NCBI RefSeq assembly: GCF_028737205.1
Contig: NZ_JAQZAL010000001.1
Location: forward strand, 310,001 to 374,000
Direction: 5' to 3'
Length of the DNA: 64,000 nucleotides
DNA from: Actinomycetospora lutea
GTDB lineage: Bacteria; Actinomycetota; Actinomycetes; Mycobacteriales; Pseudonocardiaceae
A program made the position numbers and the translations under genes. The notes below the pieces were generated by a model, which had not been told where the DNA came from, made no database searches, and worked only from the letters and a program-made list of their open reading frames with translations. Positions 47,191 to 58,773 of this stretch are shown piece by piece; positions within the stretch are counted from its first letter, which is position 1, and each line of letters opens with the position of its first letter.

Positions 47191-48348
47191 TCAGCTCCAG
47201 AGACGTCGGGTGGCGATCTCCGCGCCCGCCGACAGCGCCCGGAACTTCTCCCACACCACCGTCGGGTGCACCTCGGGGGCGTAGCTCGCGCGCGAGGAGA
47301 AGCCGCAGTCGGCGCCGGCGACGACGTTCTCCTTCCCGACCACCGAGGCGTACCAGCCGATCATGTCGGCGATCAGCTCCGGGTGCTCCACGTAGTTCTG
47401 CGCGTGGCCGAGCAGCCCCGGGATGAGCACCGCGCCGTCGGGCAGCGGGAGGTCCTGCCAGACCTTCCACTCGTGCATGTGGCGGGGGTTGGCGACCTCG
47501 AAGGAGTAGCCCCCGGCGCGGATCCCGAGCATGTAGGGGGCGACCTCGCCCATGCCGATGTCGTGGATCCGGGGCCCGTGGTTGAGGCCGTAGCAGGTGT
47601 GCAGGCGGATCTTCTCGGTCGGGATGCCGCGCAGGCTGTGGTTGACGATCTCGGCGTGCTCGCGGGCGGTGCGGTCGCGCTCGGCGGGCGCGAGACCCGG
47701 GTCGGAGAGGATCTCGATGAGCCACGGGTCGTCGATCTGCAGCAGGAAGCCGGCGTCGACGATCGCCAGGTACTCCTCGCGCAGCGCCTCGCCGACGGCC
47801 TCGTAGTACTCGCGGTCGCTGGCGTAGTACTCGTTGCGCCCGAAGCCGCGCGGCGAGGTCGACGGCATGAACGCCTCGACGACGCCGGACACCCCGGCCA
47901 GGGCCTTGTGCAGGTTGGCGAGGTCGGTCTGCAGCTCGTCGTGGCCGGTGTAGCTCACCGGCCCGACGCACGCGACGCTCTGCATCGGCGCCACCGTCTT
48001 CGCGTACTTGCCGAGGTAGCCCTCGTAGTACTCGGGGAACGCGTCGATCTCGACCTGCCAGGACGGCGGGAGGAGCCGCTCGCCGGAGTCGGGGGAGAAG
48101 CCGTCGAGCCGGCGCTGGACGTAGGTCGCGAAGCTGACCTTGCCCATCTCGCCGTCGGTGACCACGTCGAGCCCGACCTCCCGCTGCCGGGCGACGACGT
48201 CGGCGACGGCCTCGGTCACCTGCCGGGCGAAGAGGTCGGCGTCGTAGGGACGCCCGTGCTCCTTCTCCCGCATCGTGTCGAGCAGGGCCTCGGGGCGGGC
48301 GAGGCTGCCGACGTGGGTCGTCAGGACGCGGTCGGTGCTGCGCTGCAT
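47191..48348 (-). CDS. cobalamin-independent methionine synthase C-terminal-like protein
   Basis: A 385-residue TIM-barrel protein of the MetE C-terminal family. The zinc ligands of MetE are in place: H250 and C252 (LHTCYG), E284 (FEVANPRHMHE) and C348 (AGADCGFSS). The N-terminal half of full MetE is missing, as in archaeal MetE and in stand-alone methyltransferases. THVGSLARPEAL starts the barrel. It probably moves a methyl group to a thiol, but its own methyl donor is unclear. It sits beyond the aromatic meta-cleavage genes on the same strand, so a role in disposing of methyl groups is possible. TAGCGT lies 7 nt before the ATG. Confidence 0.8.
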   Translation of the reverse strand: MQRSTDRVLTTHVGSLARPEALLDTMREKEHGRPYDADLFARQVTEAVADVVARQREVGLDVVTDGEMGKVSFATYVQRRLDGFSPDSGERLLPPSWQVEIDAFPEYYEGYLGKYAKTVAPMQSVACVGPVSYTGHDELQTDLANLHKALAGVSGVVEAFMPSTSPRGFGRNEYYASDREYYEAVGEALREEYLAIVDAGFLLQIDDPWLIEILSDPGLAPAERDRTAREHAEIVNHSLRGIPTEKIRLHTCYGLNHGPRIHDIGMGEVAPYMLGIRAGGYSFEVANPRHMHEWKVWQDLPLPDGAVLIPGLLGHAQNYVEHPELIADMIGWYASVVGKENVVAGADCGFSSRASYAPEVHPTVVWEKFRALSAGAEIATRRLWS

Positions 48349-48355
48349 GGACCCG

Positions 48356-48361
48356 ACGCTA
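48356..48361 (-). promoter_or_regulatory. -10 box (TAGCGT), leaderless-type
   Basis: TAGCGT on the minus strand, 7 nt before the ATG at 48348; it gives the MetE-like gene its own promoter apart from the dioxygenase operon. Confidence 0.4.
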
Positions 48362-48384
48362 GGAGCGCGGCGGGGAGGCGGGCA

Positions 48385-48546
48385 TCACCTCGTTCCGGTG
48401 CGGCGAACGGTCGTCACGATGCCGGCGAGCACCACGTCGACGCCCTCGAGGAACCGCTCGCGGTCGTCGTGCCCGCGCATCTGGTCGGCGACGGTCCGCG
48501 TGAATGAGTACGCCTCGGGGTCGAGCTCCTCCCAGGTCGTCGACAC
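48385..48546 (-). pseudogene. TetR-type regulator C-terminal remnant
   Basis: A 53-codon frame whose translation (TWEELDPEAYSFTRTVADQM, then RGHDDRERFLEGVDVVLAGI) resembles the last ~50 residues of TetR regulators with a TetR_C-type ligand domain. No N-terminal HTH is present upstream in any frame, and the apparent GTG at 48546 has no ribosome binding site. I read it as a decayed regulator fragment; a real small protein cannot be excluded. Confidence 0.4.
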
Positions 48547-48618
48547 GGCACCGAGGCCTGGCGCTCGTCGCGCACCCGGGCGACGTCGAGGCCGCGGCGT
48601 TCACCTCCTGAGGCTCGC

Positions 48619-49434
48619 TCAGCCCCGGGCCCGCTCCAGGTCCGCCGAGATCCGCGCCGCGGCCCGGCGCACGCCCTGGACGACCGCCGGCTTGCGGGGT
48701 CCGAGGACGCGCGAGGTCGGCCCGACCACCGACAGCGCGGCGACCGGGTGCGGGCGCCCCTCGCGGGTGAGCGTGATCGGCGCGGCGATCGACGACCAGC
48801 CGGGCTCGAACTCCTCGCGGGAGGTCGCGTAGCCCTGATCGCGGGTGATCGCGAGGATCTGCCGGTAGCGCAGCGGGTCGACCACCGTGAACGGCGTGTA
48901 CCGCCGCAGCCCGCGCTCGAGGATCGCCGTGATGAGCGCCGGGTCCGCGGCGGCCAGCACCCGGCCCGCGCTCGACGAGTGCGCCGGGTTGCGGCGGTGC
49001 TCGCTGCGGAAGCGGACGTTCATGCCGGCCGCCTCGGCGCGCTCGACGTAGAGCACGTCGGTGCCGACGCTGACCCCGAGCTGGATCGTCTCGCGCAGCA
49101 GCTCGCGCAGGTCGCCCATCGCCGGCAGGGCGACGTCGCGCAGCATGAGACGGTCGACGGCGAGCTGGCCGTACTCGAACAGCCGCAGGCCCAGGCGGTA
49201 GCGCCCCGAGCCGGTGCGCTCGAGCAGCCCGCCGGTGGCCAGGGCGGCCAGCATCCGGCAGGCGGTGCTCTTGGCGATCCCGAGCCGGGCGGCGACCCGC
49301 GTCGCCCCGAGCTCGGCCTCGTCGGCGAAGCAGTCGAGCACCGAGACCGCCGTCGAGACCGACCGCAGCGGGGAGTCGTCGTCGCCGGGTCCGCCGGCGT
49401 CGAGGTCGAGCGGGGGGAGGGACAGGACGGTCAT
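48619..49434 (-). CDS. IclR-family transcriptional regulator (leftward arm)
   Basis: A 271-residue IclR regulator. HTH: LRSVSTAVSVLDCFADEAELGATRVAARLGIAKSTACRMLAALATGGLLER; effector domain from about 95 with VSVGTDVLYVERAEAAGMNVRF, AHSSSAGRVLAAADP and EFEPGWSSIAAPI. ATG at 49434 overlaps the histidine phosphatase stop (ATGA), so it is the last gene of the coupled dioxygenase operon. It probably senses an aromatic intermediate and acts on the operator at 52468-52507 or on its own operon. Confidence 0.87.
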   Translation of the reverse strand: MTVLSLPPLDLDAGGPGDDDSPLRSVSTAVSVLDCFADEAELGATRVAARLGIAKSTACRMLAALATGGLLERTGSGRYRLGLRLFEYGQLAVDRLMLRDVALPAMGDLRELLRETIQLGVSVGTDVLYVERAEAAGMNVRFRSEHRRNPAHSSSAGRVLAAADPALITAILERGLRRYTPFTVVDPLRYRQILAITRDQGYATSREEFEPGWSSIAAPITLTREGRPHPVAALSVVGPTSRVLGPRKPAVVQGVRRAAARISADLERARG

Positions 49435-50543
49435 CGACTCGGGCCTCCCGCATCCTCTTCCCATTGTGGGAACTCGTCCGGCGGCGGCACGTTCACCTCG
49501 GTCACGCGGTTGCGGTAGGAGACGAACGCGCTCCGGGCGCCCTCACGGACCTTGATCCGGATCTCCTCGGTGTTCAGCGGCTCGCCCGGGTCGTAGCCGT
49601 GGGCCCAGGTGGCGAAGGCGCGCATCGGCCCGGAGTGGGTCGCGGCGAGGATGCGGCGGTGGGTCAGCGAGCCGTCGGGCCGCGTCGACTCGGTGATCAG
49701 CCGGTGGAACCCGCGCCAGAACCGGCGCACGCACATCGCCGGCGGCTCGAAGTACATCATCGGGATCGTCAGCCACTCCTGGATCGGGTCCGCCCCGCCC
49801 AGCTGGGTCCGGTAGAAGCGGTCGATCTCCACGAGCCAGCGCGGGCGGTCGCCGACGGCGAGCCGCTCGAGGGTCTCGTTGGTGGCCTGGTACTGCCGGA
49901 ACGCCGAGGTGACGTCGCGCAGGCCGTCGGGGGTCCAGACCCCGAAGTTGCGCAGCTCCGGGATGGGCTCCTTCTCGGTGATCTCCGCGTCGATGCCCCA
50001 CATCTGCAGGCCGTCGGTGACCCCGTTGTAGAGCTGGTCGGCGGTCTGGCGCGCGCGGTTGGTGTCGGCGCAGACCAGGCGGACCCGGTCGCCGTGGTCG
50101 AAGCGGCGCGCGAGCTCGTGGCCGCGCCGGTGGGCCTGCCAGCCGCCCATCGGCGTGAGGCCGGCGTCGGTGGAGTAGCCCTGGGTGATGCCGTGCCGGA
50201 TGATCGAGATCTCGCAGACGATCTTCTCGGACGCGCGGCGCTCGACGGGTGCGGCGACCTCCTTGCCGCGGCTCGCCTCGGCGAGCGCGGGGGTGAACTC
50301 CTGGCCCTCCCAGGAGACGGTCCCCGTGTCGGCGGGCGCGGACCCGCGCTCGCGGAAGCGGCGCAGGTAGAGCGGCGTGCTTGCCTGGTCGGGGTTCTGG
50401 CTGGGCTCCGGCGGGGCGACGGGGGCGGCGGCCTCGGGAGCGGACTTCTCGGCTCCGCGGCGCGAGCGGTAGCGCGACAGGTAGTCCGGGGCCTCGTAGC
50501 GGTGCACCGAGCGGGCGTCGGGCCGCTGTTCGGTGCCTGTCAC
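49431..50543 (-). CDS. histidine phosphatase superfamily protein with duplicated N-terminal motif
   Basis: A 370-residue protein. Residues 1-105 are Pro/Ala/Glu-rich and carry two copies of a short basic aromatic motif, YLSRYRSRRG (21-30) and YLRRFRERG (59-67). The histidine phosphatase domain follows: R116-H117-G118 (IIRHGITQG), CADTNRARQTADQL, and the second histidine in LAATHSGPMRAFA. This branch-2-like domain removes phosphate from small molecules or proteins. It is coupled to an extradiol dioxygenase upstream (GTGA) and an IclR regulator downstream (ATGA), a context for which I know no role. Confidence 0.8.
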   Translation of the reverse strand: MTGTEQRPDARSVHRYEAPDYLSRYRSRRGAEKSAPEAAAPVAPPEPSQNPDQASTPLYLRRFRERGSAPADTGTVSWEGQEFTPALAEASRGKEVAAPVERRASEKIVCEISIIRHGITQGYSTDAGLTPMGGWQAHRRGHELARRFDHGDRVRLVCADTNRARQTADQLYNGVTDGLQMWGIDAEITEKEPIPELRNFGVWTPDGLRDVTSAFRQYQATNETLERLAVGDRPRWLVEIDRFYRTQLGGADPIQEWLTIPMMYFEPPAMCVRRFWRGFHRLITESTRPDGSLTHRRILAATHSGPMRAFATWAHGYDPGEPLNTEEIRIKVREGARSAFVSYRNRVTEVNVPPPDEFPQWEEDAGGPSR

Positions 50544-51478
50544 GAGTGCACCGTGAAGAAGCGCTCGTTGACCTGGCGGTGGTAGTAGAAGATGGCCCGC
50601 CCCATCTCCTCCTCGGTCCAGGTGATCGGCTCGAAGTCGGGGTCGACCCAGTAGCCGCCGGTGAAGAGCTCGTTGCGGTTGCCGGCCGGGTCGAAGAAGT
50701 AGGTCGTGTACCCGCGGGTGACGCCGTGGCGCGTAGGGGCCACGTCGATCGTCACGCCGTGGTAGGCGAGCGCGTCGGCGGCCTCGCGGATGCCGTTCCA
50801 GTCGTCCAGCCAGAACGCGAAGTGGTGCAGCGCCCCGTTCGGTCCGGTGATCACCGCGATGTCGTGCGGGGTGTGGGAGTGCTCGAGGAACGTCGCGAGC
50901 TGGTGCCCGTCGTTGGCGAGGATCTGCTCGGTGAGCCGGAACTCGAGCAGCTCGGTGAAGAACGCGGTGAACGCCTCGACGTCCTCGGCCATCACGAAGA
51001 CGTGGTCGAGGCGCGGCGGCGCGATCCCGATGAGGTCCTGCGGACGGGGCGGCGGGTTCGTCCTCGGCAGCATGTTGCCGATCCGCTCGGTGCCGTGGGT
51101 CAGCTCGACGAGGTGGCCCGACGGGGCGTCGAAGCGGATCGCCTCGCCCCAGCCCGGGCCCAGCTCGCGGGCGGCGAAGCGCTTCACCGGCACGCCGGCG
51201 GCCTCGAGCCTGCTCGTGAAGTGGTCGAGGTCCGAGGCCTCGTTGAGCTTGAACGACATGTGGTCGAGGCCGTAGGTGGGGGCCTCGCGCAGGATCACCG
51301 AGTGGTGCTCGCGCTCGTCCCAGCACTTGAGGAACACCCGCGGGGCACCGTCGCGCTCGTCGCGCGCGGTCTCCAGGAGGCCGAGGACCTCGGTGTAGTA
51401 GGCGGTGGCGAGCTCCAGGTCGGGGACCCGGACCTCGACGTGCTGCAACCGGATGATCCGGTCGGAGGTGGTGGCCAT
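50540..51478 (-). CDS. catechol 2,3-dioxygenase-like extradiol dioxygenase (second in operon)
   Basis: A 312-residue two-domain VOC-fold extradiol dioxygenase. Fe(II) ligands are H159 (RLDHVFV), H218/H219 (GALHHFAFW) and E270 (NRNELFTGGY); the second-shell H251 and Y260 match the acid/base residues of XylE-type enzymes. It cleaves a catechol ring next to the two hydroxyls. It lies 14 nt after a 304-residue paralogue, and its stop overlaps the histidine phosphatase start. The exact catechol is unknown. Confidence 0.9.
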   Translation of the reverse strand: MATTSDRIIRLQHVEVRVPDLELATAYYTEVLGLLETARDERDGAPRVFLKCWDEREHHSVILREAPTYGLDHMSFKLNEASDLDHFTSRLEAAGVPVKRFAARELGPGWGEAIRFDAPSGHLVELTHGTERIGNMLPRTNPPPRPQDLIGIAPPRLDHVFVMAEDVEAFTAFFTELLEFRLTEQILANDGHQLATFLEHSHTPHDIAVITGPNGALHHFAFWLDDWNGIREAADALAYHGVTIDVAPTRHGVTRGYTTYFFDPAGNRNELFTGGYWVDPDFEPITWTEEEMGRAIFYYHRQVNERFFTVHS

Positions 51479-51492
51479 GGTCGACGAGTCCT

Positions 51493-52407
51493 TCACGTGT
51501 GCATCCGCAGGAACCGCTGGCTGATGACGTTCTCGTAGTAGAAGAGGCCCTTGCCGAAGTTGTCCTCGGTCCAGGTGAGGATCTCGGTGTCGGGGTCGAC
51601 CCAGTAGCCGCCGGTGAAGACCTCGTTGCGGATCCCGAGCGGGTCGAAGAAGTAGATGGTGTTGCCGCGGGTGACGCCGTGGCGCGTCGGGCCCTGGTCG
51701 ATCTGCACCCCGTTGAAGGCGAGCGTATCGGCCGCCTTGCGGATGTGGTCCCAGTCGTCGAGCCAGTACGCCCAGTGGTGCAGGGCGCCGTTGGGGCCGT
51801 TGACGATGGCGATGTCGTGCGGCGAACGGGTGTTGCCCGCGAGCCACACGCCGAGCTGGTGGCCGTTGCCGTCGAGCACCTGCTCGGTCATGCGCATCCC
51901 GAGCACGTCGATGAAGAACGCCGCCGACTCGGCCACCTCCTCGGCGTTGACCAGCATGTGGTCCATCCGCGGCGGCGCGATGCCGGGCAGGTCGGGCGGC
52001 GGCACCGGCGACGGGTTGTGCTTGCCGAGCAGGTTGCCGGTCTTCTCGATGTCCCAGACCAGCTCCATGATCTGGCCGGAGGGAACCTCGAACCGGATCG
52101 ACTCGCCCTGGCCCACCGCGCCGCCGCGGCTGACGCGCGAGGTCGGGCAGCCGTAGGCCTCGACCTTCTTCTCCAGCTCGTGGAGGTCGTCCTCCTCCTC
52201 GACGCGGAAGGTGAAGGAGTCCAAGCCGGTGCGCGGGTTGTAGCGCATCCGCAGCGAGTGGTGGTCCTCCTCGTCCCAGCACTTGAGGTATACGCAGTCG
52301 TCGGTGCGCTGCACCTGCTGGAGGCCCATCACCTCGGTGTAGTACGCCGCCGAGAGATCGAGATCGGGCGTGCGGACGTCGACGTGGGCCAGGCGGAGGA
52401 TTCCCAT
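51493..52407 (-). CDS. catechol 2,3-dioxygenase-like extradiol dioxygenase (first in operon)
   Basis: A 304-residue extradiol dioxygenase with Fe(II) ligands H150 (RMDHMLV), H210/H211 (GALHHWAYW) and E262 (IRNEVFTGGY). The overall plan equals the next gene, but the two proteins differ across most of the N-terminal domain, so they probably prefer different catechols or act in turn. ATG at 52407 has a GGAAAGGGC purine-rich segment upstream. First gene of the leftward operon, divergent from the hydratase operon, with the IclR-type operator between. Confidence 0.9.
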   Translation of the reverse strand: MGILRLAHVDVRTPDLDLSAAYYTEVMGLQQVQRTDDCVYLKCWDEEDHHSLRMRYNPRTGLDSFTFRVEEEDDLHELEKKVEAYGCPTSRVSRGGAVGQGESIRFEVPSGQIMELVWDIEKTGNLLGKHNPSPVPPPDLPGIAPPRMDHMLVNAEEVAESAAFFIDVLGMRMTEQVLDGNGHQLGVWLAGNTRSPHDIAIVNGPNGALHHWAYWLDDWDHIRKAADTLAFNGVQIDQGPTRHGVTRGNTIYFFDPLGIRNEVFTGGYWVDPDTEILTWTEDNFGKGLFYYENVISQRFLRMHT

Positions 52408-52467
52408 GCGAGATGCCCTTTCCGGGCGGGGCCGGCTTCCTTGACGCCGCGACGCTAACCGCCCTAG

Positions 52468-52507
52468 CGTTCCGGAAGGAAGACAGCGTGTTCCGACTTC
52501 CGGAACG
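52468..52507. promoter_or_regulatory. candidate IclR operator (perfect 11-bp inverted repeat)
   Basis: CGTTCCGGAAG (52468-52478) and CTTCCGGAACG (52497-52507) are exact inverted copies with 18 nt between. Each contains the 8-bp palindrome TTCCGGAA, so two operator-like sites lie about three helical turns apart, in the divergent region of the meta-cleavage locus, which holds two IclR genes. Confidence 0.7.
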
Positions 52508-52532
52508 CCGGGGCTTGACGGGAGGGGTCGTC

Positions 52533-53276
52533 GTGGCGGACCCGATGGCCATGCGCCGCGCGGTCGCCGGCTACGTCGAGGGCATCCACCGCGCCTACCT
52601 CCAGCAGGCCGGGACGTTCCCGCCCGCGGTGCAGGGGCGGTTGCCGCTGATCGCGGCCGGGCGGGTGACCGTCGCCGCGGTCGGCGCGCGCAACCTGCAC
52701 ATCCTCGCCACCACCGAGGGGCTCGGCCCGACGCGCGGCCAGGAGGTGGAGCTCCCGGGCTCCGCCGAGGGGCTCGAGTGGGTCGTGCGCTTCTACGACC
52801 CCGTGGTCGTGCCCGCGCTCGGGCTCATCGACGAGTCGGACGGTCCGGCGTCGGACGCGGTCCGCGGCGCGCTGGGCATCTCGACCGTCGTCTACCACGT
52901 GGTGACCCAGCCCGGCTCCGGTCTCTCGCCCCACCACGCGGGCCATGTCGGCTCGGGGCTGGCGAGCGCCCACTCCGCGGCCGCCCGCGACTTCGAGCGC
53001 CTGCGCGACCGGGCCCGGGGCCGCGAGGCGCTGGTCGACGAGATGGAGGGCGCCGCCGTGGCCGGGCTCGCCCGGGCCCAGATCCTGCTGGCGCGCGCCA
53101 TCCGCCCGTACGACTCGGCGGTCGGCGAGGCCGTCGACGCCGCCCTGCGCCCGGGCGCGACGCCCGACCCGGACGCGGTGCGCAAGGTGCTGCTCGAGCG
53201 CTTCACCGGGACACGGAGCACTGAGGAGAGCACGCCGATGGGGGAGCTGGACCCGTCGGGGCAGGAGCCGGCGTGA
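52533..53276 (+). CDS. hypothetical protein coupled to IclR regulator in aromatic operon
   Basis: A 247-residue soluble protein. The start is GTG at 52533, 6 nt after GGGAGGGG; the ATG at 52545 is possible. I recognise no domain. N-terminal AVAGYVEGIHRAYLQQ is helical, LPLIAAGRVTVAAVGARNLHILATTEGLG looks like beta strands, and the middle GISTVVYHVVTQPGSGLSPHHAGHVGSGLASAHSAAARDF contains several His that might bind metal; a long helix follows. Its stop overlaps the IclR gene start (GTGA), so it is a fixed part of the meta-cleavage operon. Confidence 0.65.
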   Translation: MADPMAMRRAVAGYVEGIHRAYLQQAGTFPPAVQGRLPLIAAGRVTVAAVGARNLHILATTEGLGPTRGQEVELPGSAEGLEWVVRFYDPVVVPALGLIDESDGPASDAVRGALGISTVVYHVVTQPGSGLSPHHAGHVGSGLASAHSAAARDFERLRDRARGREALVDEMEGAAVAGLARAQILLARAIRPYDSAVGEAVDAALRPGATPDPDAVRKVLLERFTGTRSTEESTPMGELDPSGQEPA

Positions 53277-54064
53277 CCGACGCGCCGCTGCAGACGGTCA
53301 CGAACGCCGCCCGGCTGCTCAAGGCGTTCCTGACGCGCGAGGAGTCGCTCGGCGTCTCCGAGCTCGCCCGCCGCCTCGACCTGGGCAAGAGCGCGGTGCA
53401 CCGGCTGCTCAGCACGCTCGCCGCCGAGGGGCTCGTCGAGCAGGACCCGCGCACGGGCGGCTACCGCCTCGGGCTCGTCGTCTTCGAGCTGGGCGAGGCC
53501 GTGCGCGTGCACATGGATCTGCACGCCGCCGCCGGCTCGGTGCTGGCCCACCTGCGCGAGGAGACCGGCGAGTCCGCGCAGGTCGGGATGCTCGACGGCC
53601 ACGACGTCGTGTACGTCGACCGGCTGGAGTCCAGCCACGCGCTGCGGCTGTTCACCGAGACCGGGCGCCGCGTGCCGGTGCACTGCACCAGCTCGGGCAA
53701 GGTGCTGCTCGCCTTCGCGCCCGAGCCGGTGCGCGAGCGCTACCTGGCCACGGCCCCGCTGACCCGCCACACGCCCCACACGCTGACCGACCCCGACGAC
53801 CTGCGCCGCGCGCTCGCCACCGTCCGGGCCCGAGGGTGGGCCGACGCCGTCGACGAGCGCGAGGTCGGCGTCGCGTCGCTGGCCGCCCCGATCCGCGACG
53901 CGCGGGGTGCGGTCGTCGCCGCCATCGGCATCGGCGCGCCGGTCAGCCGGTTCCGCGCCATGCCCCGCAAGCGCCTGGCCCGCACGGTGGTCGAGGCCGG
54001 CGAAGCCGTGTCCCGGCGCCTCGGGTGGTCCGAGCAGGCCCCCGTACTCGAGAAGGAGAGCTGA
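53273..54064 (+). CDS. IclR-family transcriptional regulator (rightward arm)
   Basis: A 263-residue IclR regulator. HTH: LQTVTNAARLLKAFLTREESLGVSELARRLDLGKSAVHRLLSTLAAEGLVEQD; effector domain with SAQVGMLDGHDVVYVDRLES, VPVHCTSSGKVLLAF and EREVGVASLAAPIRD. It lies in the hydratase operon, coupled at both ends (GTGA overlap upstream; the hydratase GTG is adjacent to its TGA). Likely controls the divergent region at 52468-52507. A different protein from the IclR at 48619-49434. Confidence 0.88.
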   Translation: MTDAPLQTVTNAARLLKAFLTREESLGVSELARRLDLGKSAVHRLLSTLAAEGLVEQDPRTGGYRLGLVVFELGEAVRVHMDLHAAAGSVLAHLREETGESAQVGMLDGHDVVYVDRLESSHALRLFTETGRRVPVHCTSSGKVLLAFAPEPVRERYLATAPLTRHTPHTLTDPDDLRRALATVRARGWADAVDEREVGVASLAAPIRDARGAVVAAIGIGAPVSRFRAMPRKRLARTVVEAGEAVSRRLGWSEQAPVLEKES

Positions 54065-54865
54065 GTGGCCGTCACCGACCCCCCGGGAGATCCAGTGAAG
54101 GCGAAGGCGCGGGCGCTGTACGAGGCGCGGCGCACGCGTGTGCCGATCGCGCCGTTCACCGACACCGAGCCCGACCTCGACATGGCCGACGGCTACGCGA
54201 TCCAGCAGGAGCTCGTGCCGCTGCTGCTCGCCGACGGCGACCGGGTCGTCGGGCACAAGGTCGGCGTCACCTCCGCCGCGATGCAGAAGATGATCGGCAT
54301 CGACACCCCGGACTACGGCCCGGTGCTCGCGTCGACGGTCTACCGTGACGGCGACGCGATCCCGCTGAGCCGCTTCATCCAGCCCAAGGTCGAGGCGGAG
54401 ATCGTCTTCGTGCTCGGGCAGCGGCTGCAGGGCCCGGGCATCGGCCCGACCGACGTCGCGCCCGCGATCGCCGGGGTGGCCGCGGCGATGGAGATCGTCG
54501 ACTCGCGCATCGCCGACTGGCGCATCAAGCTCGCCGACACCGTCGCCGACCTGGCGTCCAACGGCGCGGTGGCCGTGTCCTCGCGGCTCGTGCCGCTCGC
54601 GGGGCTCGACACCCGGCTGATCGGGATGACGTTCACGCGCAACGGCGAGCTCGTCGACACGGGCGCCGGCGCCGCGGCCCTCGGCGACCCGCTGGCCGTC
54701 GTGGCCTGGCTGGCGAACGTGCTGGGCGAGGCCGGGGTGGCGCTCGAGCCCGGGCACATGATCATGACGGGCGCGCTGCACGCGGCGGTCCCGCTGGCCG
54801 CGGGCGACGTGTTCCGCGCCGAGTTCGACCGGCTGGGGCCGGTGACGATCAGGGTGGAGGGCTGA
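54065..54865 (+). CDS. 2-oxopent-4-enoate (2-keto-4-pentenoate) hydratase
   Basis: A 266-residue member of the hydratase/decarboxylase family. VGHKVGVTSAAMQKMIGIDTPDYGPVLAS and QPKVEAEIVFVLGQRL are the shared family blocks with the metal-binding E-x-E (VEAEIVF). It adds water to 2-oxopent-4-enoate, giving 4-hydroxy-2-oxovalerate in meta-cleavage pathways. The GTG at 54065 touches the IclR stop; a GTG at 54095 with GGGAG ahead would give MKAKARALYEARRT and is a good alternative. The next gene is the paralogous decarboxylase; the two are known to form a complex in other organisms. Confidence 0.85.
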   Translation: MAVTDPPGDPVKAKARALYEARRTRVPIAPFTDTEPDLDMADGYAIQQELVPLLLADGDRVVGHKVGVTSAAMQKMIGIDTPDYGPVLASTVYRDGDAIPLSRFIQPKVEAEIVFVLGQRLQGPGIGPTDVAPAIAGVAAAMEIVDSRIADWRIKLADTVADLASNGAVAVSSRLVPLAGLDTRLIGMTFTRNGELVDTGAGAAALGDPLAVVAWLANVLGEAGVALEPGHMIMTGALHAAVPLAAGDVFRAEFDRLGPVTIRVEG

Positions 54866-55632
54866 TGGCTGCCGACGTGCACGAGCTGGCGTCCCGGCTG
54901 ACGAAGGCGGTCACCGAGCGCACGGCGATCGACCCGCTCACCGACGACGTCCCGGACCTCGACCTCGAGACCGGCTACGCCGTGCAGCGCGTGCTGCGCG
55001 AGCAGGCCGGTCCGCGGGTGGGCTGGAAGCTCGGGGTGACCTCGCGGGCCAAGCAGGCGCAGGTCGGGGTGTCCGACCCGGTCTTCGGGTTCCTGCCCGG
55101 CGCCGGTGCCCTCGACCTCGGCGAGCCGCTGCGCACCGGCGAGCTGATCCAGCCGCGTGCCGAACCGGAGATCGTGTTCGTGCTCGGGCGGGACCTCGCC
55201 GGCGAGCACGTCACGGCCGCCGACGTGCTGTCCGCGACGTCGGGGCTCGCCGCCGGCATCGAGATCCTCGACTCCCGGTTCCGCGACTACCGGTTCACCA
55301 TGGCCGACGTCGTCGCCGACAACACCTCGGCGGCCCGCTTCGTCGTCGGCACGCCGGTGCCCGCCGCGGGCATCGACGTCCGGCTCGTCGGGGTGCTGCT
55401 GGAGAAGAACGGGGAGCTCGTGGCGACCGCCTCCGGGGCCGCGTCGCTCGGGCACCCCGCCGCCGCCGTGGCCTGGCTCGTGCGCCGGCTCGCCGCGCAG
55501 GGCGAGGGCCTGGCGGCCGGCGAGGTGGTCCTCTCGGGCGGCCTCACCGCCGCCACGCCAGTCGCTCCCGGCGACGTCGTCACCGTGACCATCGACCGCC
55601 TCGGGACGATCGAGCTGGCCTGCTCGTCCTGA
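54865..55632 (+). CDS. 2-oxo-3-hexenedioate (4-oxalocrotonate) decarboxylase
   Basis: A 255-residue paralogue of the preceding hydratase. VGWKLGVTSRAKQAQVGVSDPVFGFL and QPRAEPEIVFVLGRDL correspond to the metal-site blocks; W-K-L-G-V-T-S-x-A-K is typical of the decarboxylase branch. It removes CO2 from 2-oxo-3-hexenedioate to give 2-oxopent-4-enoate. ATG at 54865 overlaps the hydratase stop by 1 nt (TGATG). Confidence 0.83.
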   Translation: MAADVHELASRLTKAVTERTAIDPLTDDVPDLDLETGYAVQRVLREQAGPRVGWKLGVTSRAKQAQVGVSDPVFGFLPGAGALDLGEPLRTGELIQPRAEPEIVFVLGRDLAGEHVTAADVLSATSGLAAGIEILDSRFRDYRFTMADVVADNTSAARFVVGTPVPAAGIDVRLVGVLLEKNGELVATASGAASLGHPAAAVAWLVRRLAAQGEGLAAGEVVLSGGLTAATPVAPGDVVTVTIDRLGTIELACSS

Positions 55633-55649
55633 CCGCTCTGGAGGCTTCC

Positions 55650-55853
55650 ATGCCGCTCGTGCAGATCACCCTCGCCCGGGGCCGCAGCCCCGAGCAGCTT
55701 GCCGCGCTGGGGGAGGAGGTCACGGCGGCCGTGACGCGCGCGGTCGGTGCGCCCGCCGAGAACGTGCGCGTCGTCGTCACCGAGTGCGAGCCGGAGCACT
55801 GGTTCGTCGGCGGGGAGTCGCTCGCGGCGCTGCGGGCCTCCGGTCGGCGGTGA
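55650..55853 (+). CDS. 4-oxalocrotonate tautomerase
   Basis: A 67-residue tautomerase subunit. After Met removal Pro1 (PLVQITLARGRSPEQL) is the catalytic base, and the ARG segment carries Arg11-like residue. NVRVVVTECEPEHWFVGGES is the usual second half. It converts the enol and keto forms of 2-hydroxymuconate. Its presence shows the dehydrogenative branch of meta-cleavage is intended, though the semialdehyde dehydrogenase is not in the window. A GGAGGC RBS precedes the ATG. Confidence 0.88.
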   Translation: MPLVQITLARGRSPEQLAALGEEVTAAVTRAVGAPAENVRVVVTECEPEHWFVGGESLAALRASGRR

Positions 55854-56191
55854 CGCTGGTCCGCGTCGAGGGGCCGGGGGTCGTCACCAGCGACGACGGC
55901 CGGCGCTTCGTCGTGCTCGCGGTGCCCGACGGCCTGCGCGTCGTCGACGCCGTGTGCCCGCACAACCGGGGTCCGCTCGAGCAGGGCTGGGTGCGGGACG
56001 GGGCCACGCTCGTCTGCCCCTGGCACTGGTACCGCTTCGACCTCGACACGGGGGAGTGCGCGACCTCGCCGCAGCACGTGCTCGGCGTCCACCCCGTGCG
56101 CGAGATCTCTGGCGTCACCTACGCCGACGTCGGCGAGCCGCCCCGGGAACTGTCGTGGTCGGAGCGCCTGCGGGCCCACGCGCGGGAGTGA
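55850..56191 (+). CDS. Rieske-type [2Fe-2S] ferredoxin
   Basis: A 113-residue Rieske protein with C36-P-H38 (VCPHNRGPLEQG) and C56-P-W-H59 (LVCPWHWYRFDL), the C-x-H ... C-x-x-H ligand set. Such ferredoxins pass electrons to ring-hydroxylating oxygenases. The oxygenase at 57424-58773 is 1.2 kb away on the other strand and is the natural partner. GTG at 55850 overlaps the tautomerase stop (GTGA). Last gene of the rightward operon. Confidence 0.85.
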   Translation: MTLVRVEGPGVVTSDDGRRFVVLAVPDGLRVVDAVCPHNRGPLEQGWVRDGATLVCPWHWYRFDLDTGECATSPQHVLGVHPVREISGVTYADVGEPPRELSWSERLRAHARE

Positions 56192-56272
56192 TCCGCCCGG
56201 CTCGTCCGGGTCCCCGGAACGGTGTCGCCGGGGGCGGCCTGACGACGGGTCGTGGAAGGTATGTTGCCGCGC

Positions 56273-57118
56273 GTGTCCTCCCCCTTCGGCGGTGGCTCCG
56301 GATCCGGTGACCCCGACCGGTCCGAGTCGTTCGGCTCCCAGCCCACCCAGTACGGGCCCACGGCTGAGCCGTCCGGGCCCCAGCCCTACTACGGGGATCC
56401 GCAGGGCGCCCCGTACCAGCAGGGGTACGGGCAGCAGCCGTACGGACAGCCGGGGTACGGGCAACAGGGCTACGGCCAGCAGGGCTACGGGCAGCCCGGC
56501 TACGGCCAGCCGGGGTACGGGCAGCAGCAGCCCTACGGTCAGCAGCCCTACGGCCAGCCCGGATACGGGCAGCCGTACGGCCAGCAGCCCTACGGCCAGC
56601 CCGGCTACGGGCCCTACGGCGGCTGGCAGCAGCAGCCGCCCCGGAAGAAGAACAAGGCGCTGCCCTGGATCCTGGGCGGCGCGGCCGTGCTCGTCGTCGC
56701 GGTGGTCGCGGTCGTCGTCCTGGTGCTGACCCTCGGCGGCGGCGCGGTCGAGGGCGCGTCCCAGCGGTCGGTGCCGATCCCCGACTCGGACCCCGTCGGC
56801 GTCACCGACACGATCACGCTCGACGGCTCGGGCACGGTCTCGGCGATCCAGGTCAACGCCACGATCAGCCACCCGTACGTCTGCGACCTCGTCGTCACCC
56901 TGCGCTCGCCACAGGGGCAGACGGTGGTGCTGTCCGACCTCGACCAGTGCGACCGCAACCGCCCGGGCCTGGCGCTCGCGCTCGACGGCAACCAGGGCGG
57001 CCCGCTGGCCCCGCTCGTCGGGCAGTCGGTCGGGGGCGCGTGGACGCTCACGGTGGCTGACCGCGTCGCCATCGACCGCGGCACGCTCGACAGCTGGAAC
57101 ATCACGATCGAGCGCTAG
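56273..57118 (+). CDS. membrane-anchored P-domain protein (YGQ-repeat N terminus)
   Basis: A 281-residue paralogue of the 40296-41057 product. Residues ~45-120 are a low-complexity repeat of [10 protein letters not shown] and PYGQQ units; a basic KKNK stop-transfer and one membrane helix (about 131-154) follow; then a P/Homo B beta-sandwich (168-281): [28 protein letters not shown] ... [35 protein letters not shown]. The Tyr/Gln/Gly tail resembles phase-separating or scaffold tails, which is inference only. Start uncertain: GTG 56273 is chosen because MSSPFGGG is a natural start; GTG 56252 and ATG 56261 are in frame. Confidence 0.75.
56406..56630 (+). repeat. coding repeat (YGQP/YGQQ units)
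   Basis: About a dozen degenerate 12-15-bp units of the type TACGGGCAGCCG / TACGGCCAGCAG inside the second P-domain gene. They encode Tyr-Gly-Gln-Pro/Gln. Coding repeat, not a CRISPR. Confidence 0.8.
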
Positions 57119-57157
57119 CTCGACGCCGGCGGCGCTCCGGCGAAGGGTGCCCGTCGC

Positions 57158-57427
57158 TCAGTGCTCCGGCTCGTGACCGATCGCCCGATCGCCGGTGGTC
57201 GTGACCTCGCCGGTCCAGTCGCAGCTCGCGCACCAGCAGTAGAACCGGCGCGCGTCGCCCTCCCAGAACTCGTTCGCGAGGCCCAGGTCGCGGGCGCAGG
57301 ACGGGCAGAAACGCGGCGCGTCGCGGCGGTGGGCCTCGACGTCCGCGGCGAAGCGGCGGTCGATCCTGGCGCCGGGCGAGCCGTCGGGAACCGTCACGGC
57401 TGCCACCATCCCCTCCGGCTGCGTCAC
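57158..57427 (-). CDS. 89-residue zinc-ribbon protein coupled to ring-hydroxylating oxygenase
   Basis: A small protein with C41-P-S-C44 (FCPSCARDLG) and C64-W-C-A-S-C69 (FYCWCASCDW), a probable zinc-ribbon or treble-clef metal site. The rest is polar. Its GTG at 57427 overlaps the oxygenase stop by 4 nt. Possible roles are a stability or assembly factor for the oxygenase or an electron carrier with a rubredoxin-like Fe site; the spacing C-x2-C ... C-x-C-x2-C does not fit rubredoxin well. Not recognised as a named family. Confidence 0.7.
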   Translation of the reverse strand: MTQPEGMVAAVTVPDGSPGARIDRRFAADVEAHRRDAPRFCPSCARDLGLANEFWEGDARRFYCWCASCDWTGEVTTTGDRAIGHEPEH

Positions 57428-58773
57428 CGCGGGATCGTCCCCGAGTCCACCTGGGCGGAGGTGTCGGGTGCGAGCGTGGCGGTGCCGATGCCGCCGGCGG
57501 GCGTGAACGACGGGCGCGCGGCGGCCTTGTCGGTCTCGACGCGCGCCGCCGCCGTGAGGTGCACCTGCTTGATCGCCTCGAGGTCGGGGGAGTGGCGGGT
57601 CGACCCCATGTTGCAGAAGTCGATCGCGAACTCCGCGCCGCCCGCGTGGAACTTGTCCTTCTCGCAGGGCAGGTCGATGCGCTCGTGGGGCTCGCGGATG
57701 GTGCCCAGCGGGTCCTCGCCCTTGGCGACCGCCTGCATCGACTGGCGGAACATCTTGCGCAGCAGCGAGACGCCGATGTCGGACCGGCCGAGGTGCTCGG
57801 TGGTGCGGTCGGTGATCGGGCCCTGCGTCACCCAGGCCATGATGTCCTGGCCCTCGACGTAGTTGACGACGTGGTTCCCGCGGTCGTCGAACACCGGGAT
57901 CTCGTAGTCGGGCACGGTCTCCTGCGCCACGGGCTCGTAGCCCTCGGGCGCGTGCACCGTGTAGAGCATGAAGCGCGTCGTCGTGCGGTTGATCGGGACG
58001 CGGATCTGCATCTGGTGGATGCCGCCGCCGCCGACGCGCATGTTGTAGGGGAAGACGAGCGGGTGGCCGACCTTCCAGTCGTCGTTGTCCTCGCTCGCCC
58101 CCGAGAGCACGCGGCGCTTGATGATGCCCCACTCGAAGGCGTCGAAGCCGATGCGCTGGTGCTTCTTGCCGAACGACGCCGGCGCCTCGAAGCCCTCGTG
58201 GCGGCCGATGAACTCGAAGTAGCGGCCGTGCAGGTGCTCGACGTGGTGCGGGTCGACCGCGTTCTCCATGACCTGCACGTAGTTGCAGGGGATGTCGGCC
58301 CAGCCGATGTCGCGGTAGCCGTCCATCACGTAGACGTCGAAACGGGGCAGCAGCGGCGCGGGGTCCGGACCGATGTACGCCCAGACGAGCCCGCCGAGCT
58401 CCTCGACCTTCCCGGCGGTCGCGCGCACCCGCTCCTGGAAGTTGGTGTTGGCCTTCTCGGCCGGCTGGTCGGTGCACGCGCCGTCGGTGTCGAACTTCCA
58501 CCCGTGGTACGGGCAGCGCAGCCCGTCGCCCTCGACGACGCCGTAGGCCATCGACGCCTTCCGGTGCGGACACGGCTCGGGGATGATCCCGTACTTCCCG
58601 GACGGCGTGCGCCACAGCGCGAAGAACTCGCCCAGCAGCTCGACGCGCTTGACGGGGAACTCGGTGAGCTCGCGGGTGAACGCGACGGGGTACCAGTAGC
58701 GGCGCAGCACCTCGCCCATCGGCGTGCCGGCCTCGACGGCGGTGAGTTCCTCGTTCTGCTCGGCGGTCAGCAC
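57424..58773 (-). CDS. Rieske non-heme iron ring-hydroxylating oxygenase
   Basis: A 449-residue oxygenase alpha subunit of the phthalate 4,5-dioxygenase-like type. Rieske ligands C68-P-H70 (EPCPHRKASM) and C87-P-Y-H90 (LRCPYHGWKFD); mononuclear Fe site in NAVDPHHVEHLH (D174 bridge, H177, H182). Single-component alpha3 enzymes of this class hydroxylate or O-demethylate aromatic acids. RBS GGGAGG before a GTG start at 58773. Followed by the coupled zinc-ribbon gene. No reductase gene is in the window, but a Rieske ferredoxin is at 55850. It may supply the catechol cleaved by the nearby dioxygenases. Confidence 0.88.
   Translation of the reverse strand: MLTAEQNEELTAVEAGTPMGEVLRRYWYPVAFTRELTEFPVKRVELLGEFFALWRTPSGKYGIIPEPCPHRKASMAYGVVEGDGLRCPYHGWKFDTDGACTDQPAEKANTNFQERVRATAGKVEELGGLVWAYIGPDPAPLLPRFDVYVMDGYRDIGWADIPCNYVQVMENAVDPHHVEHLHGRYFEFIGRHEGFEAPASFGKKHQRIGFDAFEWGIIKRRVLSGASEDNDDWKVGHPLVFPYNMRVGGGGIHQMQIRVPINRTTTRFMLYTVHAPEGYEPVAQETVPDYEIPVFDDRGNHVVNYVEGQDIMAWVTQGPITDRTTEHLGRSDIGVSLLRKMFRQSMQAVAKGEDPLGTIREPHERIDLPCEKDKFHAGGAEFAIDFCNMGSTRHSPDLEAIKQVHLTAAARVETDKAAARPSFTPAGGIGTATLAPDTSAQVDSGTIPR

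What the first reader, a model, noticed from the sequence alone, without database searches (positions are those of the whole stretch)
47191..58773. Divergent aromatic meta-cleavage locus with two IclR regulators, two extradiol dioxygenases and unassigned coupled partners
Seen: two tandem extradiol dioxygenases, a histidine phosphatase and an IclR gene are joined by 4-bp overlaps or short gaps leftward; rightward an unknown protein, a second IclR, hydratase, decarboxylase, tautomerase and Rieske ferredoxin. Known: hydratase, decarboxylase and tautomerase belong to the oxalocrotonate branch. Inference: the phosphatase, the 247-residue unknown and perhaps the MetE-like protein take part in a catabolic route not fully described. 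Aldolase, semialdehyde dehydrogenase and acylating acetaldehyde dehydrogenase are absent here.
Basis: partly seen in the sequence, partly recalled or inferred. Interest (0 to 1): 0.78.

Follow-up and report, generated by a model that had tools for sequence, protein, structure and literature searches.

The report
Proposed phosphate-handle route to catechol
These soil bacteria appear to break down simple phenols by first attaching a phosphate, oxidising the tagged ring with a Rieske enzyme, and cutting the phosphate off again with the odd phosphatase in this cluster, giving catechol that two ring-splitting enzymes then open; if right, it is a way of degrading phenols that we did not find described.

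Summary
Layout confirmed, and not accidental. Among 57 named actinobacterial loci found through the histidine phosphatase (HPase), the two catechol 2,3-dioxygenase genes lie directly upstream in 56 and the 247-residue gene lies on the opposite strand in 55. The window ends before the key partner: a two-gene dikinase of the phenylphosphate synthase/CreHI/HpeHI type, 2.4-5.3 kb beyond it. In 14 of the 57 loci (many Nocardioides, Micromonospora, others) it is one operon: EDO2-EDO1-HPase-kinaseATP-kinaseHis-Rieske oxygenase. HPase and kinase share 30 of 297 family genomes (32 have each). In one genome the kinase-HPase-oxygenase set precedes catechol ortho-cleavage genes instead, so its product is probably catechol. 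Best reading: a phenol is phosphorylated, oxidised as aryl phosphate by the Rieske oxygenase, dephosphorylated by HPase to catechol, then meta-cleaved. No step has been assayed and the substrate is unknown. The 247-residue protein follows the cleavage genes; its role is unknown. A further kinase pair lies in the nearby aromatics microcompartment (ARO) locus, whose published study reports no upper pathway. New variant of phosphorylation-initiated aromatic catabolism.

The parts
47191..48348 (-). MetE-like (PF01717) protein, 385 aa; loosely associated
   Evidence: (19 of 57 loci)
48619..49434 (-). IclR1 regulator, 271 aa from ATG 49434
   Evidence: 37 of 57 loci
49431..50543 (-). Histidine phosphatase (branch 1), 370 aa; proposed to release catechol from its aryl phosphate
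   Evidence: PF00300; R116, H117 and R163 in 81 of 82 and H303 in 82 of 82 homologues, the one gap being a copy cut by the start of its contig; R165 in 73 of 82; fold match to PGAM/acid phosphatases
50540..51478 (-). EDO1, catechol 2,3-dioxygenase
   Evidence: TIGR03211 363.4 bits over cut-off; ligands H159, H218, E270 in 77 of 77
51493..52407 (-). EDO2, catechol 2,3-dioxygenase, 53% identical to EDO1
   Evidence: TIGR03211 354.8 bits over cut-off; ligands H150, H210, E262 in 77 of 77
52408..52532 (.). 125-bp divergent intergenic region between the two operons (promoter/operator region, inferred)
   Evidence: gene coordinates
52533..53276 (+). U247, conserved protein without a known family; predicted alpha+beta fold
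   Evidence: pLDDT 88.8; best PDB match E 1.3; 55 of 57 loci
53273..54064 (+). IclR2 regulator, 263 aa
   Evidence: 53 of 57 loci
54065..54865 (+). 2-oxopent-4-enoate hydratase-like
   Evidence: TIGR03220 best, 260.4 bits, below its cut-off 408.8
54865..55632 (+). 2-oxo-3-hexenedioate decarboxylase-like
   Evidence: TIGR03218 best, 245.2 bits, below its cut-off 350.55
55650..55853 (+). 2-hydroxymuconate (4-oxalocrotonate) tautomerase, 67 aa
   Evidence: NF002571 70.2 bits over cut-off 55
55850..56191 (+). Rieske ferredoxin, 113 aa
   Evidence: PF00355 45.5 bits over cut-off 20.3; 49 of 57 loci
57158..57409 (-). Small CxxC...CxxC (zinc-ribbon-like) protein behind the oxygenase; similar small proteins behind the oxygenase in other lineages
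   Evidence: no Pfam family for the two homologues scanned
57424..58773 (-). Rieske oxygenase, phthalate-dioxygenase/LigXa/DdmC-like; proposed to oxidise the aryl phosphate
   Evidence: PF00355 and PF19301 LigXa_C over cut-off; no substitution of the checked Rieske and iron ligands in 69 homologues, 1-4 alignments not reaching each position

Best explanation
The cluster is the in-window part of a phosphorylation-dependent route from a simple phenol to catechol and on through meta cleavage. (1) A two-component dikinase (ATP-grasp subunit plus phospho-His swivel/substrate subunit), just outside the window at window coordinates 66369-67517 and 67514-69334, phosphorylates the phenolic OH. (2) The phthalate-type Rieske oxygenase, fed by the Rieske ferredoxin and a reductase, oxidises the aryl phosphate, by ortho hydroxylation or possibly O-demethylation, to 2-hydroxyaryl phosphate. 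(3) The histidine phosphatase removes the phosphate and releases catechol. (4) EDO1/EDO2 cleave catechol; tautomerase, decarboxylase and hydratase here, and aldolase and acylating acetaldehyde dehydrogenase 13-15 kb beyond the window end, finish the path. IclR1 and IclR2 control the two divergent arms. Shown by sequence: the genes, their conserved active-site residues, the conserved order and the co-occurrence. Inferred: every reaction of steps 1-3, the substrate, and the regulation.
For: Operon EDO2-EDO1-HPase-kinaseATP-kinaseHis-RO, all in one direction, in 14 of 57 HPase-selected loci (Nocardioides and relatives, Nostocoides, Micromonospora globispora, a deep MAG). Searches from the other genes agree. 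Kinase-selected in 396 phylum genomes: 9 of the 11 places with >=60% identity were examined and all 9 have EDO2-EDO1-HPase-kinaseATP-kinaseHis-RO in one direction, RO being cut by the contig end in L132 and L135. Oxygenase-selected in 394 class genomes: kinase pair in 14 and HPase in 12 of the 18 loci examined. HPase and kinase share 30 of 297 family genomes (32 each; 12 shared of 14 and 14 outside the own genus); 29 of the 30 have them on one contig, start coordinates 1.0-23.4 kb apart. In G039 and G234 an HPase only 38-40% identical sits directly beside kinase and RO, and in G234 the set is followed by intradiol catechol dioxygenase, MLE-type and muconolactone isomerase genes, so catechol is the likely product. 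Kinase subunits match PPDK_N and PEP-utilizers; relatives HpeHI, CreHI and PpsAB phosphorylate phenols (PMC12167813). Kinase homologues at 43-46% identity sit beside biotin-carboxylase-type and HAD genes, as in the Hpe pathway (Pfam-confirmed in L142), an internal control. The L112 operon adds HAD, reductase, hydratase-like, acetaldehyde dehydrogenase and aldolase genes.
Against: No activity is known for any member. In the window's own genus the kinase starts 14.0-23.4 kb from HPase (17 genomes with both on one contig), not in its operon; in four other Nocardioides loci (L092, L095-L097) it is not next to HPase either. Some homologues lack the others: HPase homologues without a kinase nearby (L120, L121, L125, L126), RO homologues without kinase or HPase (L162, L163, L178), kinase without HPase or RO but with a diiron phenol hydroxylase (L119), other kinases with neither (L123, L124, L136, L137, L140-L145). 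The window-type swivel subunit has Cys, not Thr/Ser, in the T/SxxGGxxxH motif (6 of 6) and only 27-28% identity to the operon type (ATP subunit 38%). In the 11.7-kb contig L161 a HAD gene and no HPase accompanies kinase and RO. No dedicated semialdehyde dehydrogenase was identified in the own genome.
Confidence: 0.6

Rival explanations
1. HPase is a SixA-like phosphohistidine phosphatase: it resets the phospho-His swivel domain of the kinase and so regulates the route, rather than acting on a pathway intermediate.
For: SixA, a histidine phosphatase, removes phosphate from phospho-His carriers (PMC6282199, PMC7948535; listing and start of abstract seen). The relatives of the kinase work through a phospho-His. 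HPase tracks the kinase in 30 of 297 genomes.
Against: HPase is 370 aa with a conserved N-terminal extension and is next to the EDO genes in 56 of 57 loci, with the kinase next to it in only 14. In L161 a HAD gene lies between kinase and oxygenase and no HPase is found on that contig, which suggests that a small-molecule phosphatase step is what is needed.
Confidence: 0.12
2. Same phosphate-handle route, but the substrate is a methoxyphenol (guaiacol type) and the Rieske oxygenase is an O-demethylase acting on the aryl phosphate; the MetE-like protein would help with one-carbon disposal.
For: The PDB relatives include DdmC, dicamba O-demethylase, and the window oxygenase and its L112 and L118 homologues match LigXa_C over cut-off, with VanA_C below its cut-off; LigXa and VanA are O-demethylases (LigXa recalled). 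The MetE-like gene recurs beside the module (19 of 57 loci; L117, L122, L161).
Against: The two best PDB matches are a Rieske domain protein (7fjl) and a putative phthalate 4,5-dioxygenase (7fhr), not O-demethylases. No MetE match appears in the loci outside Actinomycetospora, Pseudonocardia and the Pseudonocardiaceae MAG L090. L119 pairs the kinase with a phenol hydroxylase, which points to plain phenols.
Confidence: 0.25
3. The kinase only traps phenols inside the cell (uptake and detoxification), HPase releases them, and the oxygenase then acts on the free phenol.
For: Trapping is the rationale offered for HpeHI by its authors (PMC12167813 Discussion). L119 has kinase plus a diiron phenol hydroxylase.
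Against: Phthalate-type Rieske enzymes act on anionic substrates (recalled), and where the kinase has an oxygenase beside it in the loci examined it is nearly always this one (exception L119). In the Hpe pathway the next enzyme accepts only the phosphorylated form (PMC9618137, passages).
Confidence: 0.13
4. An ordinary catechol meta-cleavage operon; the phosphatase and the kinase are unrelated neighbours.
For: EDOs, tautomerase, decarboxylase- and hydratase-like enzymes are of the usual dmp/xyl type.
Against: Conserved order across many families from three independent starting genes, and the ortho-cleavage variant in L118.
Confidence: 0.04

Closest known systems
Hpe pathway (HpeHI kinase, HpeCBA carboxylase, HpeD phosphatase), Rhodococcus rhodochrous GD02
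   Same: Two-component aryl dikinase starts the path; a phosphatase removes the handle later (PMC9618137 passages; PMC12167813 abstract, passages and Discussion).
   Different: Next step there is a biotin-dependent carboxylase and the phosphatase is NagD-like; here a Rieske oxygenase and a histidine phosphatase, leading to catechol.
CreHI-initiated 4-cresol catabolism, Corynebacterium glutamicum
   Same: Aerobic, kinase first (PMC12167813 passages and Discussion). A P450 then acts on the phosphorylated compound and a phosphatase follows (recalled).
   Different: Arene or methoxy oxidation by a Rieske oxygenase is proposed here instead of side-chain oxidation; coupled to extradiol cleavage.
Phenylphosphate synthase PpsAB, anaerobic phenol catabolism (Thauera, Aromatoleum)
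   Same: Phosphorylation of phenol by a homologous two-component dikinase (PMC12167813 passages).
   Different: There anaerobic, with carboxylation of phenyl phosphate (recalled); here oxygenases and a phosphatase.
Catechol meta-cleavage (dmp/xyl) lower pathway
   Same: Catechol 2,3-dioxygenases over TIGR03211 cut-off, tautomerase over cut-off, decarboxylase- and hydratase-like enzymes.
   Different: Two tandem EDOs, a phosphatase and an unknown 247-aa protein; no phenol hydroxylase or dedicated semialdehyde dehydrogenase seen in the cluster.
ARO bacterial microcompartment locus
   Same: Meta-cleavage, IclR-type regulator, actinobacterial (PMC10470539 section 5); in the loci examined it contains its own kinase pair and HAD, often an HPase.
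   Different: LigB-type AmnAB dioxygenase and shell genes; a separate locus about 20 kb away in this genome.

Membership tests
Catechol meta-cleavage pathway | Catechol 2,3-dioxygenase with intact iron ligands | tested here: met
   TIGR03211 over cut-off for both; H, H, E in 77 of 77 homologues of each
Catechol meta-cleavage pathway | Tautomerase, decarboxylase and hydratase of the oxalocrotonate branch | tested here: inconclusive
   Tautomerase over the NF002571 cut-off; the other two match best to TIGR03218 and TIGR03220 but below cut-off
Catechol meta-cleavage pathway | 2-hydroxymuconic semialdehyde dehydrogenase | tested here: not met
   No own-genome match over the TIGR03216 cut-off; other aldehyde dehydrogenases could serve
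Phosphorylation-initiated aromatic catabolism (Pps/Cre/Hpe type) | Two-component dikinase: ~360-aa ATP-grasp subunit plus ~600-aa swivel subunit | tested here: met
   PF01326 and PF00391 in separate adjacent genes of 382 and 606 aa (own genome) and 370 and 603 aa (L112); outside the window
Phosphorylation-initiated aromatic catabolism (Pps/Cre/Hpe type) | Swivel motif T/SxxGGxxxH with catalytic His | tested here: inconclusive
   Operon-type kinases 23 of 23; window-type keep GG and His in 6 of 6 but have Cys at the T/S place (motif from PMC12167813)
Phosphorylation-initiated aromatic catabolism (Pps/Cre/Hpe type) | Kinase phosphorylates a phenol in vitro | not testable with these tools
   needs enzyme assay
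Hpe pathway proper | Biotin-dependent phosphophenylethanone carboxylase beside the kinase | tested here: not met
   None noticed among the genes called beside the window-type and operon-type kinases (read by eye, not searched by model); present in control locus L142 by Pfam
Histidine phosphatase superfamily, branch 1 | RHG motif, second Arg, second His; PGAM-like fold | tested here: met
   PF00300 33.8 bits over 21.7; residues; Foldseek matches E 6e-8 to 5e-6 in the rows listed, model of mean pLDDT 62
ARO microcompartment locus | BMC shell genes and AmnAB dioxygenase in the cluster | tested here: not met
   The two PF00936 matches of the genome are at C18:392 kb, outside the window

The most novel reading that the evidence does not exclude
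An unrecognised aerobic route of actinobacteria turns phenols into catechol while they carry a temporary phosphate: dikinase, phthalate-type Rieske oxygenase working on the aryl phosphate, histidine phosphatase, then meta or ortho cleavage as interchangeable lower paths. The same phosphate-handle logic (kinase pair plus HAD/HPase) is built into the ARO microcompartment operon and is the upper pathway that its discoverers could not find.
Probability: 0.45. Interest if true: 0.82.

Novelty: new variant of a known kind. Interest (0 to 1): 0.68.

Why it matters
Catechol is normally made from phenols by flavin or diiron hydroxylases (recalled). A path that spends ATP to tag the ring, uses a Rieske oxygenase on the tagged ring and then removes the tag would add a fourth branch to the small set of known phosphorylation-initiated aromatic pathways. 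It would give a role to a phosphatase found beside extradiol dioxygenases in many actinobacteria. It makes two questions left open in print directly testable: why such pathways begin with a costly phosphorylation (PMC12167813, Discussion), and what upper pathway feeds the ARO microcompartment (PMC10470539, passages).

Tried and rejected
U247 function: Pfam, NCBIfam and PDB sequence searches and Foldseek on a good model gave nothing; no role is assigned beyond its link to the cleavage genes. HPase in plasmids: no match. The idea that the window cluster itself is part of a microcompartment was rejected: shell genes are 18 kb beyond the window end. The idea that HPase and kinase always travel with the ARO locus was rejected: 14 of 297 family genomes have AmnA, 10 of these have HPase, but outside the own genus only 1 of 5. 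An inactive second EDO was considered and rejected: both keep all six checked residues in 77 of 77. L050 first looked like a natural deletion of EDO/HPase; its genome (G037) carries them on another contig. Paper searches for a description of this combination: searches listed no paper whose title or abstract start describes it (open-licence PMC library only; most subscription papers are not held, supplements were not seen).

Selection and misses: the 57 loci were selected by HPase, and kinase and RO counts there are limited by flanks of 10 kb or less. Of 29 kinase places, 5 were not looked at (G682, G423, G309:C21, G405, G613:C20; the first and last are >=60% identical, the last partial). Of 19 RO places, the own one was not re-fetched. 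Gene neighbours come from a simple GC3-based caller of mine that misses or mis-strands genes (for example RO in L135, low-GC L167 and L174); repeat the key presence and strand tests by tblastn. In the scripts the labels pepsATP_aro and pepsHis_aro stand for the L052 operon-type kinase, not the ARO one. Hypergeometric p-values ignore relatedness and are not used as evidence.
Full report
WHAT IS THERE. Left arm: EDO2, EDO1, histidine phosphatase (HPase), IclR1. Right arm: 247-residue protein (U247), IclR2, hydratase-like, decarboxylase-like, tautomerase, Rieske ferredoxin. The arms diverge from a 125-bp gap.

IS IT MORE THAN CHANCE. The HPase was used to scan named genomes: 57 distinct loci in Actinomycetospora, Pseudonocardia, Nocardioides, Kineosporia, Nostocoides, Micromonospora and several MAGs. 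EDO1 is directly upstream in 56 of 57 and EDO2 next in 56 of 57; in the exception, L091, the HPase itself is cut by the start of the stretch. U247 is on the opposite strand in 55 of 57, IclR2 is present in 53, RO in 40, IclR1 in 37, MetE-like in 19 (flanks of 10 kb or less). U247-selected loci in the own family give the same picture: 30 of 297 genomes have a match, one of them weak and interrupted by stops (G247).

THE MISSING PARTNER. Just past the window end lie an IclR2 paralogue (match 65620-66351), an ATP-grasp protein (66369-67517, PF01326) and a swivel-domain protein (67514-69334, PF00391) in window numbering. Sizes and domains fit the two-component aryl dikinases HpeHI, CreHI and PpsAB (PMC12167813: abstract, passages and Discussion read). 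In 14 of the 57 loci a homologous pair follows HPase directly and RO follows the pair: EDO2-EDO1-HPase-kinaseATP-kinaseHis-RO. [quoted passage not shown] In four Nocardioides loci (L092, L095-L097) the kinase is not next to HPase.

TESTS FROM OTHER STARTING POINTS. (a) Phyletic: in the same 297 family genomes HPase (E <= 1e-30) and kinase (E <= 1e-100) occur in 32 each and share 30; outside the own genus they share 12 of 14 and 14. Of the 30, 29 have both on one contig with start coordinates 1.0-23.4 kb apart; the thirtieth (G250) is a fragmented assembly. (b) Kinase-selected, 396 phylum genomes: 23 have a match in 29 places. Of 11 places of >=60% identity, 9 were examined (L127-L135; families f16, f17, f21, f32, f36, f40); all 9 carry EDO2-EDO1-HPase-kinaseATP-kinaseHis-RO in one direction, RO being cut by the contig end in L132 and L135; U247 is found divergent in 8 of 9, not in L134. 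Lower-identity kinases sit in other contexts; five loci (L141-L145) have biotin-carboxylase-type and HAD-like genes (by eye; Pfam-confirmed in L142), as expected for the Hpe pathway. (c) RO-selected, 394 class genomes: 16 have a match; of 18 loci examined the kinase pair is in 14 and HPase in 12. L162, L163 and L178 have neither; L169 ends at the RO; L161 has a HAD gene but no HPase.

WHY CATECHOL. In G039 and G234 a diverged HPase (38-40% identity) lies next to kinase and RO without EDO or U247 in the stretch examined. In G234 the set is followed by intradiol catechol dioxygenase (PF00775, PF04444), a muconate-cycloisomerase-type enzyme and muconolactone isomerase (PF02426). The same set thus precedes either meta or ortho cleavage of catechol. 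In G226 the kinase stands with a diiron phenol hydroxylase (PF02332) and an EDO, without RO or HPase in the stretch. Both point to a simple phenol as substrate and catechol as product.

MECHANISM. Proposed: ATP-dependent phosphorylation of the phenol; oxidation of the aryl phosphate by the phthalate-type RO (closest PDB chains 7fjl and 7fhr; DdmC is fourth); phosphate removal by HPase (catalytic residues kept wherever the alignment reaches in 82 homologues, except the third Arg, R165, kept in 73; fold matched by Foldseek on a model of mean pLDDT 62); cleavage by EDO1 and EDO2 (all six checked residues in 77 of 77 each). None of the reactions is shown. Whether RO hydroxylates or O-demethylates is open.

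THE UNKNOWN PROTEIN. U247 has no family, no PDB relative and no fold match (best E 1.3 for a model of pLDDT 88.8). It has no match in G039 and G234, whose module lacks EDOs in the stretch examined, so it goes with the cleavage side and its regulator IclR2.

THE ARO COMPARTMENT. This genome has an ARO microcompartment locus at C18:390-402 kb: AmnA, AmnB, shell genes, then a kinase pair, HAD, a RutC-like protein (by eye; no NCBIfam match), and an HPase about 6 kb on. Of 14 family genomes with AmnA, 9 loci were examined, the own one included; all 9 have both kinase subunits and the HAD behind the shell genes, and 7 of 9 have an HPase homologue in the same stretch. Two loci found through the kinase (L127, L138) agree, except that L127 lacks a called ATP subunit. 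In L127 the EDO-HPase-kinase-RO operon lies next to the ARO operon, and in G543 both lie within 40 kb. The main text of the ARO paper (PMC10470539: section 5 and passages read) holds no word with 'phosphatase' or 'kinase' and says that no upper-pathway enzymes could be identified; its supplements were not seen. Against a general link: outside the own genus only 1 of 5 ARO genomes of the family has the HPase cluster, and 22 of the 32 family genomes with HPase lack AmnA.

NOVELTY. Kinase-initiated aromatic pathways are known. I found none in print (open-licence library) that joins the dikinase to a Rieske oxygenase, a histidine phosphatase and extradiol dioxygenases. I rate it a new variant of a known kind.

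Noticed in passing
G000:C18:390262-395910 and 402209-402967 (L057, L058), beyond the window: The ARO microcompartment operon carries a two-component aryl-dikinase pair and a HAD hydrolase right behind its shell genes, and an HPase nearby; the main text of the ARO paper has no word with 'kinase' or 'phosphatase'.
   Followed up: partly
window 49431-50543 (-): The HPase has a conserved N-terminal extension with two similar motifs (AP.YL.RY..R and PLYLRRFR.R) joined by a variable linker, of unknown purpose.
   Followed up: no
L123 and L124: More distant kinase genes sit with an inositol-monophosphatase-family gene and MetE-like genes, another possible phosphate-handle pathway (PF00459 and PF01717 confirmed in L123).
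   Followed up: partly
L136 and L137: Kinase homologues (about 50%) beside molybdenum hydroxylase-type genes (MoCoBD domains confirmed in L136).
   Followed up: partly
L122 (G037): One locus holds both kinase lineages, back to back, with RO on one side and MetE, EDO2, EDO1, HPase on the other.
   Followed up: partly
window 56252-57118 (+): A repeat-rich protein with a hydrophobic segment (called Pdom in the scripts, no family scan) sits between ferredoxin and RO; matches in 9 of 57 loci, so probably an intruder.
   Followed up: no
L043-L045, L047-L049, L051: In the related genus g5 a ~1140-aa protein adjoins IclR1 in 7 loci; the L043 copy matches a ferredoxin oxidoreductase domain, TPP_enzyme_C and DUF6537.
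   Followed up: partly
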